Part shown: piece after piece, positions 40,956 through 58,428 of the stretch
How the letters are laid out: every line of letters starts with the position of its first letter
How positions within the stretch are numbered: the stretch's first letter is position 1
DNA from: a virus
IMG/VR virus record: IMGVR_UViG_3300020411_003736
Location: 1 to 64,000 of that record
DNA: 64,000 bases
Direction: 5' to 3' (one strand)
Notes under the pieces: generated by a model
What the model was told of the DNA's origin: nothing
The model's input: the letters and a program-made list of their open reading frames with translations, nothing else
Database searches by the model: none
Program-made: the position numbers and the translations under genes

Positions 40956-42104
40956 TTAGTCACTCACCTCATCAAATAATTCTTCATCACTTCCATCACT
41001 CACAAACTTTTGAACGATTTGTTTGACAAAGGTTCTTTCGGAATCAACACCACCACTACTATCGTATTGTGGGTAGATTGTGATATCCGCGGATTCTTCC
41101 AAAGTGAATCCATCAAATAATAGTGATACTATTTCAACAGAAGTTCGAGTTGAGATACCACTACTAATTCGTGGATTATCATTTAGTGATTCCATTCGTG
41201 TCATATGAGATATTTTACTTACATTAGAAACTAATGTCTCATCTACAGATGGAAACATATATCTGAGTAATCCGAACTCTTCTTCTTCATTTAGTAAATC
41301 CATTTCAATAGTAGTGAACCTATCCATAAGTGCCTTATCTAATTGTCGGGTCGCGGTATACTCATTACCTATGTTCGCCGTGGCGACAAATGTAACTCCA
41401 TCAGATACCTTTATTGTATCCGAACCATCTTTTTCATCCAACCTTAAATATCTTTGTCCATAATCCAAAACAGACATTAGGATATTCCACGCATCGGGAT
41501 GTGCCCGCGTCAACTCATCCAATAGTATGATTGAGTTTGGAGTTTGTATCGCCTTTACAAAAAGTGATTCCGAAAAGTAAGTTCCTTTTTTGGAATCGAA
41601 ATGTGTATTTCCAATTAGGGTACTTCGTGGATCTTGTGTACTTCCCAAATTGAAGTAGAAAGATTCCCTATCCAAAGAATTGATTAAGGATTTCGCCGCG
41701 AGTGTCTTACCACACCCCGCTTGCCCTGTCATCATAATATTCTTACCTCTAATCGCAGACCTTATGAGATATTTCCACTTCAACTCTTTCATCACCAAAT
41801 CTTTTGGTTTGAGTTTATATGAAGTTGAAATGAAGTTCATCACTTCTTCGTGTTCAGATGGTATTTCGACATCCGAAGATGGTGGTGTAGTATATGTACT
41901 TCCCATACTATCGAATTGTGACATTGGGACTTTCCACCAATATATCCTTCCACCCTTCCCAACTCTTTGTTCTAAGGCCATACCCGCGTTAAAGGCGGAT
42001 TTTCGTGTGGATGTGAGAATCTCTGAAGTCCTTTTGACTCCATTCTGATCCCACGCATTGAATCTGTTCCCACTTTTTTCAATTTTAACGATTGTTGAAT
42101 TCAT
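40956..42104 (-). CDS. cobS: AAA+ ATPase of the MoxR/CobS type
   Basis: The 382-residue protein has an N-terminal extension (about 1-100) and an AAA+ domain: Walker A GQAGCGKT (127-134), Walker B SIILLDELTR (about 191-200), sensor VATANIGNEYT and the finger segment ALMDRFTTIEMD. MoxR/CobS ATPases work with VWA partners to insert metals or remodel complexes; the likely partner is the VWA protein at 45831-47798. AAGGAGAAAAAA precedes the ATG and an early-type promoter lies upstream. In cyanophages related genes are called cobS, but cobalt chelation is unproven here. Confidence 0.8.
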   Translation of the reverse strand: MNSTIVKIEKSGNRFNAWDQNGVKRTSEILTSTRKSAFNAGMALEQRVGKGGRIYWWKVPMSQFDSMGSTYTTPPSSDVEIPSEHEEVMNFISTSYKLKPKDLVMKELKWKYLIRSAIRGKNIMMTGQAGCGKTLAAKSLINSLDRESFYFNLGSTQDPRSTLIGNTHFDSKKGTYFSESLFVKAIQTPNSIILLDELTRAHPDAWNILMSVLDYGQRYLRLDEKDGSDTIKVSDGVTFVATANIGNEYTATRQLDKALMDRFTTIEMDLLNEEEEFGLLRYMFPSVDETLVSNVSKISHMTRMESLNDNPRISSGISTRTSVEIVSLLFDGFTLEESADITIYPQYDSSGGVDSERTFVKQIVQKFVSDGSDEELFDEVSD

Positions 42105-43601: not shown

Positions 43602-43805
43602 TTAATTCATGTCCTTTTTAACTTTAGGTTCATAGTATACTTTATCATAACAATTTAAACATAATTGTCCACACCCTTCTATATATCCCAATCTGAAATC
43701 CAAATGTTCATCTATGTCAAATTGAGTTTCACAATCACATATCACGCATTTATCTTTAGGTTTTATCTCTTCTTCTATTCCAATTGTCATTAATGGTTTT
43801 CTCAT
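43602..43805 (-). CDS. small zinc-ribbon-like protein, 67 residues
   Basis: The protein contains KCVICDCETQF and then CGQLCLNCYDKV, giving CxxC...CxxxCxxC spacing suited to a zinc ribbon. The start is coupled by ATGA to the stop of the predicted selenoprotein gene. Function unknown. Confidence 0.55.
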   Translation of the reverse strand: MRKPLMTIGIEEEIKPKDKCVICDCETQFDIDEHLDFRLGYIEGCGQLCLNCYDKVYYEPKVKKDMN

Positions 43806-44050
43806 TTTACTAAATTATATCCTTCTATTAAATCCTCTACTTCATCTGTATTAGGAAATCTCCCAACCTCTTCCTTACTAAACAACATAGATGTCGCGTT
43901 ATTTGTGTGTAGAAACTTTACATTAAATATTCCATCCGAACCTTGTATTAAATCTACTTCTACTCCGAATCTATTTACTAAACTTTCCCTTAAACTAAGG
44001 GCTTGAAATTCATACCCTCATTGAGTACAATACTCTATAGTGATTTTCAT
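43802..44050 (-). CDS. predicted selenoprotein, SelW/Rdx family (in-frame UGA = Sec)
   Basis: Reading the TGA at 44018-44020 as selenocysteine gives 82 residues: MKITIEYCTQ-U-GYEFQALSL then ...ESLVNRFGVEVDLIQGSDGI... and LFSKEEVGRFPNTDEVEDLI. This is the Rdx (SelW/SelT/SelH) thioredoxin-like fold, with the redox motif CxxU at positions 8-11 followed by Gly-Tyr exactly as in SelW. Sixteen nt after the UGA a CCCTT-AGTTT-AAGGG hairpin forms, matching bacterial SECIS rules. TGA is a normal stop elsewhere in the window. GGA lies upstream, and the true TGA stop overlaps the next start (ATGA). No Sec machinery is in the window, so host SelA/B/D and tRNA-Sec would be required. A nonsense-mutated Cys gene is the alternative. 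Confidence 0.8.
43987..44001 (-). promoter_or_regulatory. putative bacterial SECIS hairpin
   Basis: CCCTT-AGTTT-AAGGG forms a 5-bp stem on the minus strand inside the SelW-like gene. The apical loop starts 21 nt after the UGA and has G at its second position, both within the known range for bacterial SECIS elements. Confidence 0.65.
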
Positions 44051-44054
44051 CTAT

Positions 44055-44177
44055 TTATCCATTTATACATTCTAAGAATCTTTTTAATATTCTTTTTATC
44101 TTATTCCTTTCACCTCTATTTCTTTCCCATAATAGAAATAACTCTTCTCTAAGTTTTGCCTCCGCTGACTCGCTCAT
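44055..44177 (-). CDS. small basic helical protein, 40 residues
   Basis: The frame starts MSESAEAKLREELFLLWERN and ends ...RFLECING, overlapping the upstream gene by 29 nt, with GAGAG before the ATG. It ends 4 nt before the selenoprotein start. Unknown. Confidence 0.5.
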   Translation of the reverse strand: MSESAEAKLREELFLLWERNRGERNKIKRILKRFLECING

Positions 44178-45830: not shown

Positions 45831-47798
45831 TTATTTCTCCAAAAACATATTGTTCATTGTTTTAGCCACTTCCATCATATTTGTGGGATTGATAAAAGTC
45901 GCATCCCTACCATACATTCTACTAAAAGTAGTTTTTTCATTCTCATAGGAATAATCACTACTGATAAAGTAACTCAATATTTTGATTCCATTATTTCGAA
46001 GTTGCTTCACCATTTTTTGAGTATGTTTCACAGCTTCTGTGCCTGAATAATGAATATCATTATTACCAAACCAAGGAGCCCCATCTGAATAATTGATGAA
46101 GTAATTATCATCACTATTTGACAAACCTAAAAAGTGATTCATCATAGCTTCGTAACATAGTGACTCTGGAGTAGTTCCACTAGTTCTAAGTGATGGCCAT
46201 AGATTCTTAACTTTACTTATCTTATCTTTTTGTGAATCATACGCAATCAACAGAACAGGATTATTTTCATTAGTATATCTCATACTCACAACAACTCTAA
46301 TGTTTCCAGCCATCTCAGCCGCTTTAATGATTGCCACAGTAGAGGTAATTGCATTTTCCCACTTCTTACCATTCATAGAACCTGAACCATCAATAGAAAT
46401 ATGAAGATTAGCTTTATTATATCTTTCTGTAAAGGTTTGTGAAAAAACTCTCTCATTACCAAATCCCAACTCAGAAATTAATCTTTTGTCTATTTTACCA
46501 GTATCTTGACGAGTGAAAATTAAATCTCTCTCTTCCCCACGAACCTTTAATTTCTTACCTAACATAGTTCCCAAACGAAGACCCTCAAGAATTGGTTTCC
46601 CATAATGTGAATCCCATACATCATCACCACCATACAACCAAGGTTTTTGAGCAAAATGAAAAGCATTACTATCTATTAAATCTTGAGTAAGATTAGGAAT
46701 AACAACACATTTTGTTTTTCCCATATATCCACCATCACCAACCTCAACCATCTCAGCACCACTTTTTGCAACAGAATTAACAATCTGAGCATCTCTTTTG
46801 GTTAGTTTGGATTTTGGTGTTTTTCCATCCATAAAATCTTTAGCTTTTTGAACAGCATTGATGAGTGATTTCTTTTGTCTATCTGATAACTCTTCAAAAT
46901 CTACAGAATCACCTTTTTCACCATCTTCAGCATCACCCGACTCAGCATCATCTCCTGGAGTCATTTCAGCATCACCAATATCAATAGTAGTTCCACCACC
47001 CATTTGAGAATCACTTTCTTCATTCTCTCCATCACCATTTTGTGACTCCGGCTGACCATTACCATTTTCATCATTGGTAGATTTAACAGAACCAACTATT
47101 GAAAATACCATATTTGAAACTTCTCTAGCCAAATCAATCACACCTTCAGGACTCAATCTCAATACATTTTTCAAATCCATCAAATTGTATATCTCACGAA
47201 GTTTTGGAAGTGCGTCTAAATCTGATTCCTTTGGAGCCATAAAACCTAAGATACGAAACTCATAACTTTCGATATCATACTCACGATACATACCTGATTT
47301 CAAACCCTTCCTAATGGCGTTATTTCTGAAATACTTCTTATAAAGACTGTGGTAGTAACCTTTGTAGCCAGGTGAAGATTTGAAAACCTTAGTATCGATT
47401 CTCCTATCCTCAATAAAGTTAATCATATTTTTGAAAAAAGCCCTTTGTTCATAAGTCCAATCCTCAGGAGTTTCTCTAATAGCGTCAGCCAAAAGTTCAA
47501 AATCACTAAAGGCAATGTGACTACCTTCGTGAAGAGCCAAACCAACTACATGGTCAAAATTCTTATCATTAATATTAGCAGAAATAGTAACATTCTTACC
47601 ATCTGTGTAACTATCTCCTCTTTGTGTATATTTAACAGGAATATTTTGTCCACTTACAATACGAACAAAATTTGCGATAGCTCTCTGATTAGAAGCCATC
47701 TGAATGTAATCTTTCTTTGGTTTTTCCTTTTCGATACCCAACAACTCATCAATGTCAGTATCATATTTATCAAACCAAAAATCCGAATAATTTTTCAT
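45831..47798 (-). CDS. VWA-domain metallopeptidase-like partner of the AAA+ ATPase (CobT-like)
   Basis: The 655-residue protein has an N-terminal domain with GLALHEGSHIAFSDFELL (HEXXH-type, residues about 87-104) and NFIEDRRIDTKVF (about 127-139), matching the N..ED.R motif of CobT/VWA-associated zincin domains. An acidic, Gly-rich linker (about 240-300) follows, then a VWA domain with the MIDAS start DGSGSMNG (470-477). CobS/CobT-like pairs of AAA+ and VWA proteins act together on metals or large complexes. The ATPase gene is 3.7 kb away on the same strand, each with its own early promoter. Function in phage is unknown. Confidence 0.72.
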   Translation of the reverse strand: MKNYSDFWFDKYDTDIDELLGIEKEKPKKDYIQMASNQRAIANFVRIVSGQNIPVKYTQRGDSYTDGKNVTISANINDKNFDHVVGLALHEGSHIAFSDFELLADAIRETPEDWTYEQRAFFKNMINFIEDRRIDTKVFKSSPGYKGYYHSLYKKYFRNNAIRKGLKSGMYREYDIESYEFRILGFMAPKESDLDALPKLREIYNLMDLKNVLRLSPEGVIDLAREVSNMVFSIVGSVKSTNDENGNGQPESQNGDGENEESDSQMGGGTTIDIGDAEMTPGDDAESGDAEDGEKGDSVDFEELSDRQKKSLINAVQKAKDFMDGKTPKSKLTKRDAQIVNSVAKSGAEMVEVGDGGYMGKTKCVVIPNLTQDLIDSNAFHFAQKPWLYGGDDVWDSHYGKPILEGLRLGTMLGKKLKVRGEERDLIFTRQDTGKIDKRLISELGFGNERVFSQTFTERYNKANLHISIDGSGSMNGKKWENAITSTVAIIKAAEMAGNIRVVVSMRYTNENNPVLLIAYDSQKDKISKVKNLWPSLRTSGTTPESLCYEAMMNHFLGLSNSDDNYFINYSDGAPWFGNNDIHYSGTEAVKHTQKMVKQLRNNGIKILSYFISSDYSYENEKTTFSRMYGRDATFINPTNMMEVAKTMNNMFLEK

Positions 47799-57951: not shown

Positions 57952-58428
57952 TTAACTTATTTTGACTGAATGTTTTTGGGGCTTGGCGGGCTCCATTTTC
58001 GGAATTTCTATTGATAGTACACCATCCTTAAAATTGGCTTTTATAGATTCACCATCAAGTAATTCACCCAATGTGAAAGATCGTTTAAATGATGAGGCCT
58101 TTAACTCTCTACGAAGCACTTTAGCACCATTCTCTTCAGGTACTCCATGTTTATCACCTGAAATGGTTAAGACTCCTTCCTCAACATCAACATTGAGTTG
58201 CTTCTTATCCAAACCAGGTATTTCGGCAACAATACCAACTTTGTCATCGTATTCATAGACATTTACCTTTGGATAAGCTGTACCTTGATATGGTTTGACA
58301 CCTACTTGGTCTATGATTTCTGGAAATTGAGTTTCCACCATAGTGTCAAACATTTTATCAAATGGGGTTAAAAAATCATCCCTATCTGGAAAAGGGAAAT
58401 TGCGTGTATTAAAAACTAATTTAGTCAT
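57952..58428 (-). CDS. hsp20: Hsp20 small heat-shock protein
   Basis: The 158-residue protein has an alpha-crystallin domain: YPKVNVYEYDDKVGIVAEIP-GLDKKQLNVDVEEGVLTISG, RRELKASSFKRSFTLGE and FKDGVLSIEIPK, ending in a short tail with the typical I-x-I-like KISV ending. Small Hsps are frequent in marine T4-like phages and hold unfolded proteins. AGGAG is 8 nt before the ATG; early and late elements overlap upstream. Confidence 0.9.
   Translation of the reverse strand: MTKLVFNTRNFPFPDRDDFLTPFDKMFDTMVETQFPEIIDQVGVKPYQGTAYPKVNVYEYDDKVGIVAEIPGLDKKQLNVDVEEGVLTISGDKHGVPEENGAKVLRRELKASSFKRSFTLGELLDGESIKANFKDGVLSIEIPKMEPAKPQKHSVKIS

What the first reader, a model, noticed from the sequence alone, without database searches (positions are those of the whole stretch)
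43802..44050. A phage-encoded selenoprotein: SelW/Rdx-like gene with in-frame UGA and SECIS-like hairpin
The sequence shows a frame that is hidden if TGA is read as stop. With Sec at codon 11 it becomes a full Rdx-family protein (EYCTQ-U-GYEFQ, GIFNVKF, LFSKEEVGRFPNTDEVEDLI). The UGA falls exactly at the redox-active position of the CxxU motif followed by GY, as in SelW. A CCCTT-AGTTT-AAGGG hairpin begins 16 nt after the UGA; its apical loop is 21 nt away and has G at position 2, consistent with published bacterial SECIS rules. TGA is used as normal stop in many neighbours (ATGA overlaps), so genome-wide recoding is excluded. Selenoproteins in phages are rarely reported; this suggests dependence on host SelABCD and possible redox control during infection.
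Basis: partly seen in the sequence, partly recalled or inferred. Interest (0 to 1): 0.95.

Follow-up and report, generated by a model that had tools for sequence, protein, structure and literature searches.

The report
Phage-encoded selenoprotein W family
A virus of bacteria carries a small redox-protein gene whose in-frame UGA "stop" codon almost certainly inserts the rare amino acid selenocysteine, and it belongs to a family of such genes found in related phages, so these phages probably depend on selenium-using hosts.

Summary
Confirmed and extended. On the minus strand, 44050..43802 reads MKITIEYCTQ-U-GYEFQALSLRES..., with one in-frame TGA (44020..44018) at the redox position of a SelW/Rdx protein. 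With Cys there it matches PF10262 (E 5e-16) and TIGR02174 above cut-off, and AlphaFold2 gives a SelW fold. The record is a T4-like myovirus; TGA ends 26 of 113 long genes, so there is no genome-wide recoding.

IMG/VR scans found 22 further viral contigs (14 distinct sequences), all with TGA at this codon. Parallel motif scans gave 21 Sec relatives and no Cys relative. The hairpin sits at the same offset in all; its pairs covary (97% paired, 0/500 shuffles) and the loop is A-G-[U/G]-U-U. 53 of 54 cellular relatives from one scan also have TGA. Codons after the UGA are under purifying selection. Viral sequences form one clade (100/98), and the gene occupies different genomic positions among related phages.

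Weak points: the window hairpin alone is unremarkable and misses the bSECIS energy limit. The host is unknown, the record shows no selB, selD or tRNA-Sec, and Sec insertion is untested. SelW-like selenoproteins are known in bacteria; I found no report of phage ones.

The parts
43802..44050 (-). SelW/Rdx-like selenoprotein gene, 82 residues with Sec at position 11, terminal TGA included
   Evidence: conserved in 22 viral contigs
44018..44020 (-). in-frame TGA read as selenocysteine (CxxU active site)
   Evidence: TGA at this codon in all viral relatives and 53 of 54 cellular relatives of one scan
43987..44001 (-). bSECIS-like hairpin CCCUU-AGUUU-AAGGG, 16 nt after the UGA
   Evidence: same offset in relatives, covarying pairs
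43992..43996 (-). apical loop AGUUU (A-G-[U/G]-U-U in all viral relatives)
   Evidence: fits the N1-G-[G/U]-N-N2 loop rule quoted in PMC13188914

Best explanation
The locus is a functional phage-encoded selenoprotein of the bacterial SelW-like (SelT/W/H, Rdx) family. During infection the host's SelB with Sec-tRNA(Sec) recognises the hairpin just downstream of the UGA and inserts selenocysteine at codon 11, giving an 82-residue thioredoxin-fold protein with a CxxU active site. It most likely acts as a small selenol/thiol oxidoreductase during infection. Shown by computation here: the frame, homology, predicted fold, conservation of the TGA, covarying hairpin, purifying selection after the UGA, and phage context. 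Inferred: SelB recognition, dependence on the host for Sec machinery, and redox function. Speculative: what it reduces.
For: Rdx match above cut-off and SelW fold with pLDDT 90, best solved matches all SelW/Rdx proteins. TGA at codon 11 in all 22 viral contigs; Sec-motif scan 21 relatives of 25 stretches, Cys-motif scan 0 of 31. Hairpin at fixed offset with covariation in viral (14 sequences, 97.1% paired, 12 two-sided changes against 4.1 in shuffles, 0/500) and in cellular relatives. dN/dS far below 1 after the UGA (L086 against L087: dN 0.15, dS 1.6). Standard code in the rest of the record. Collinear relative L098 keeps gene and TGA. 16 of 20 genomes with a cellular relative hold selB above cut-off.
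Against: No experiment. Host unknown, so its Sec machinery is unknown. The window hairpin folds at -6.3 kcal/mol against the -7.5 limit of the published model, and the isolated RNA prefers a competing fold that pairs the UGA region. L090 and L103 each break one pair of the stem.
Confidence: 0.92

Rival explanations
1. The TGA is an ordinary stop: a decayed SelW gene, or a 10-codon leader followed by non-coding DNA.
For: Standard gene callers would end the frame there; TGA is a normal stop elsewhere in the record.
Against: The frame stays open and under purifying selection after the TGA in 14 other distinct viral sequences; no second stop or frameshift in any; the TGA itself is conserved.
Confidence: 0.02
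2. The UGA is read through by a near-cognate tRNA (Cys or Trp) rather than by the Sec machinery.
For: Host and its Sec machinery are unknown; UGA readthrough exists in bacteria (general knowledge).
Against: If Cys served, TGC/TGT versions should be common, but none was found in viruses. A SelB-type hairpin is conserved and covaries. Cellular relatives with the same TGA mostly lie in genomes with selB.
Confidence: 0.04
3. The phage or its host uses a code in which UGA is a sense codon throughout.
For: Such codes exist in some bacteria and phages (general knowledge).
Against: TGA ends 26 of 113 long genes, long conserved genes have no inner TGA, and Trp is TGG 482 times.
Confidence: 0.005
4. The UGA is a selenium-dependent switch: the gene's main role is regulatory (attenuation of the downstream operon when Sec is lacking) rather than the enzyme.
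For: The UGA is early (codon 11) and the gene overlaps the next one by ATGA.
Against: Neighbouring genes differ among relatives, so no fixed downstream target; the protein itself is under selection.
Confidence: 0.03
5. A refinement of the best explanation: the protein is the electron donor of the phage's class II ribonucleotide reductase.
For: The phage encodes a class II RNR and no glutaredoxin match was found. In L092, L093, L095-L097, L099 and L100 selW sits beside gp32, UvsX/RecA, exonuclease and DnaB genes, within about 5-6 kb of the RNR.
Against: In the window and in L086-L090, L006 and L102 the gene is elsewhere. Thioredoxin was not searched for. Neighbourhood in a phage replication module is weak evidence.
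Confidence: 0.15

Closest known systems
Bacterial SelW-like selenoproteins (Rdx, PF10262 / TIGR02174; the most widespread selenoproteins with SelD in marine GOS samples, PMC2398784)
   Same: Same fold and CxxU motif, Sec at the same residue, hairpin at the same offset with a similar loop
   Different: Carried by phages; separate clade; AT-rich weaker hairpins; no Cys form found in viruses
E. coli formate dehydrogenase bSECIS elements
   Same: Hairpin directly after the UGA; the GGUCU loop seen in many cellular relatives is, from memory, that of fdhF
   Different: Viral loop is AGUUU, and the loop lies about one codon further from the UGA (comparison from memory)
Poxvirus glutathione peroxidases (molluscum contagiosum, fowlpox; PMC8310308)
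   Same: Virus-encoded selenoproteins that rely on host Sec machinery
   Different: Viruses of eukaryotes, GPx family, eukaryotic SECIS system

Membership tests
SelW-like / Rdx family (PF10262, TIGR02174) | profile match above curated cut-off | tested here: met
   PF10262 59.1 against 22.6 bits; TIGR02174 40.9 against 34.2 bits
SelW-like / Rdx family (PF10262, TIGR02174) | CxxC/CxxU motif after the first strand of a thioredoxin-like fold | tested here: met
   C8-T-Q-U11 between E2-7 and H13-27 of the model; SelW/Rdx structures are the best matches
Campylobacterota SelTWH equivalog (NF041051) | score above the equivalog cut-off | tested here: not met
   64 bits against 88; so not filed under this narrower group
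Bacterial selenoprotein | in-frame UGA aligned with Cys/Sec of homologues, conserved in relatives | tested here: met
Bacterial selenoprotein | Sec actually inserted at the UGA | not testable with these tools
   needs 75Se labelling or mass spectrometry
Bacterial selenoprotein | SelA, SelB, SelC, SelD available (phage or host) | tested here: inconclusive
   no selB, selD or tRNA-Sec match in the record, selA not searched; host not identified; 16 of 20 genomes with cellular relatives have selB above cut-off
bSECIS element (model in PMC13188914) | 3-9 nt apical loop, 4-16 bp upper stem, G in the first two loop positions, 16-37 nt from UGA to loop | tested here: met
   5-nt loop AGUUU (3 nt if A-U pairs), 5-6 bp, G second, 21 nt
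bSECIS element (model in PMC13188914) | minimum free energy at or below -7.5 kcal/mol | tested here: not met
   -6.3 for the window hairpin, -2 to -7 for the viral set; the 47-nt stretch reaches -10.5 but in another fold
bSECIS element (model in PMC13188914) | helix supported by compensatory changes | tested here: met
Tailed phage, T4-like | T4-type head, contractile tail and replication genes in the same record | tested here: met

The most novel reading that the evidence does not exclude
An old, Sec-only lineage of phage selenoproteins: T4-like phages have kept and moved a SelW gene between genome modules without reverting to Cys, which ties them to selenium-using hosts and to the supply of selenium.
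Probability: 0.8. Interest if true: 0.8.

Novelty: new variant of a known kind. Interest (0 to 1): 0.74.

Why it matters
The virus selenoproteins documented in the papers I could search are poxvirus glutathione peroxidases. A phage lineage that keeps Sec where Cys would spare it any special machinery suggests that Sec gives the phage something Cys cannot, and that host range is limited to Sec-decoding bacteria. It also means that gene callers, PHROGs and phage records miss such genes (no PHROG match; no hit in 50,697 phage records), and that some of the abundant marine SelW reads in metagenomes may be viral.

Tried and rejected
Rfam gave no match. A synonymous-codon test on the window alone did not make the hairpin significant, so I do not rest on it. 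Sub-threshold tRNA-Sec matches in relatives turned out to be ordinary tRNAs. A scan for further Sec genes in the record and in the relatives' flanks found none convincing. Host prediction: the nearest cultured-phage head proteins are from Microcystis and Flavobacterium phages at about 50% identity, not informative. Sec-SelW is common in the phylum of L056, titled Neomarinimicrobiota/Fidelibacterota (81 of 149 genomes), and one genome placed there holds an 8.4 kb contig with a collinear phage head module at about 53-56% identity for the head protein, against 38% partial matches in the phylum of L032. But contigs can be mis-binned, that genome showed no selW, and the viral clade does not nest in that phylum's sequences, so the host stays open. 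The literature search covers open PMC papers only.

Full report
WHAT IS THERE. On the minus strand of the window, 44050..43802 is an 82-residue frame, MKITIEYCTQ-U-GYEFQALSLRESLVNRFGVEVDLIQGSDGIFNVKFLHTNNATSMLFSKEEVGRFPNTDEVEDLIEGYNLVK, interrupted only by TGA at 44020-44018. It fills the space between an ORF ending at 44055 and an ORF starting at 43805 (ATGA overlap) in a densely packed minus-strand gene series. With Cys for Sec it matches Pfam Rdx at E 5e-16 and TIGR02174 above cut-off; its best NCBIfam hit, the Campylobacterota SelTWH equivalog, is below that model's cut-off. AlphaFold2, given an alignment of relatives, predicts a confident thioredoxin-like fold (pLDDT 90) whose best solved matches are SelW/Rdx-family proteins.

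THE VIRUS. The window lies in a 130,380-base virus record. It encodes a T4-type major head protein, tail sheath, baseplate wedge, DNA polymerase, DnaB, UvsX/RecA, gp32 and a class II ribonucleotide reductase: a T4-like myovirus, distant from cultured isolates (head protein at most about 51% identical, to a Microcystis phage). TGA ends 26 of 113 long genes and TGG encodes Trp 482 times, so the code is standard. The record has no selB, selD or tRNA-Sec match.

RELATIVES IN OTHER VIRUSES. Scans of IMG/VR found 22 contigs with a relative, 14 distinct sequences besides the window, at about 40-53% identity to it. Every one has TGA at the same codon. A scan for the Sec motif IEYCxxU[NS]Y found 25 stretches, of which 21 are full relatives; the parallel scan for the Cys motif IEYCxxC[NG]Y found 31 stretches, none a relative; a narrower Cys pattern found nothing. 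Three large contigs (132 kb, 131 kb, 216 kb) carry the same T4-type head protein. L098 is collinear with the window on both sides of the gene. In L092-L097, L099 and L100 the gene sits in the replication module near gp32 and UvsX and, where the contig reaches that far, the RNR. In L086-L089 it is mostly next to a nuclease-like gene, and in L090 it lies between structural genes near the baseplate. The gene has therefore moved, or been re-acquired, within this phage group while keeping the UGA.

SELECTION. In codons after the UGA, amino-acid changes are strongly under-represented: L086 against L087 dN 0.15, dS 1.6; window against L086 dN 0.40, dS 1.85 (Nei-Gojobori, high dS values are rough). 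This speaks against a pseudogene.

THE HAIRPIN. In the window the hairpin CCCUU-AGUUU-AAGGG starts 16 nt after the UGA. On its own it is not remarkable and the isolated RNA prefers another fold, although a ribosome with the UGA in its A site would be expected to disrupt that competing fold (inference). Across 14 distinct viral sequences 97.1% of cells pair, with 12 two-sided changes against 4.1 in shuffles; the loop is A-G-[U/G]-U-U in all. Two of the covarying pairs (columns 21-33 and 24-30) join third codon positions, so in most sequences the changes are synonymous and not explained by the protein. The same helix at the same offset covaries in 48 cellular relatives, whose loops include GGUCU. 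The shuffle control does not remove relatedness, but the slid-partner control falls well short of the true register. The elements obey the loop, stem and spacing rules of the published bSECIS model but not its -7.5 kcal/mol limit.

CELLULAR RELATIVES AND ORIGIN. A scan of one genome per species gave 54 relatives, many from Desulfobacterota and other uncultured lineages; 53 have TGA at the codon and one TGC. Sixteen of 20 such genomes tested (19 with the TGA form, one with TGC) hold selB above cut-off. In the phylum of L056, 81 of 149 genomes carry a relative, nearly all through a TGA. Trees of these short sequences put all viral members in one clade (95/84; 100/98 with denser sampling). Its neighbours are Desulfobacterota-type sequences, with modest support. 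Sampling is biased by the motif used, so the donor is unsettled.

FUNCTION. From general knowledge of the family: SelW-like proteins have a thioredoxin-like fold with a CxxU motif and are thought to be thiol/selenol oxidoreductases; their bacterial substrates are not known to me. Here I infer a small redox enzyme made during infection. A role as electron donor to the phage class II RNR is an idea supported only by gene neighbourhood in some relatives and the lack of a glutaredoxin match.

NOVELTY. SelW-like selenoproteins are among the most widespread selenoproteins in marine metagenomes (PMC2398784), and virus selenoproteins are known in poxviruses (PMC8310308). A later marine survey reports that apart from RNR II and two copper proteins the families examined have few or no viral sequences (PMC9402790), and a 2026 review of prokaryotic selenoproteins does not mention phages or viruses (PMC13188914). 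My searches of open papers found no report of a phage selenoprotein; subscription papers and preprints were not searched. I therefore call it a new variant of a known kind.

Noticed in passing
window 40956-42104 and 45831-47798 (-): A MoxR/CobS-like AAA ATPase gene and a 655-aa gene with a weak match to a phage cobalamin-biosynthesis (CobT-like) family flank the selW region; both are kept in L098 and L102.
   Followed up: partly
L108:796-1845 (-), record position about 124,796-125,845 (outside the window): Strong match to Volactin (PF25216), an actin-like protein, in the same phage record.
   Followed up: no
window 57952-58428 (-): Small heat-shock protein (HSP20) gene, 69-80% identical in several selW-bearing phages.
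   Followed up: no
L139 (8,445 bases): Phage head-module contig, collinear with this phage, inside a genome placed in the phylum of L056; a weak host hint.
   Followed up: partly
L076:8001-8201: The one cellular relative of the first scan with Cys (TGC) at codon 11; its genome still holds a full selB.
   Followed up: no
L131-L134 and L142-L178: Sec-type SelW is common in the phylum of L056: 81 of 149 sampled genomes, nearly all with a TGA in the frame.
   Followed up: partly
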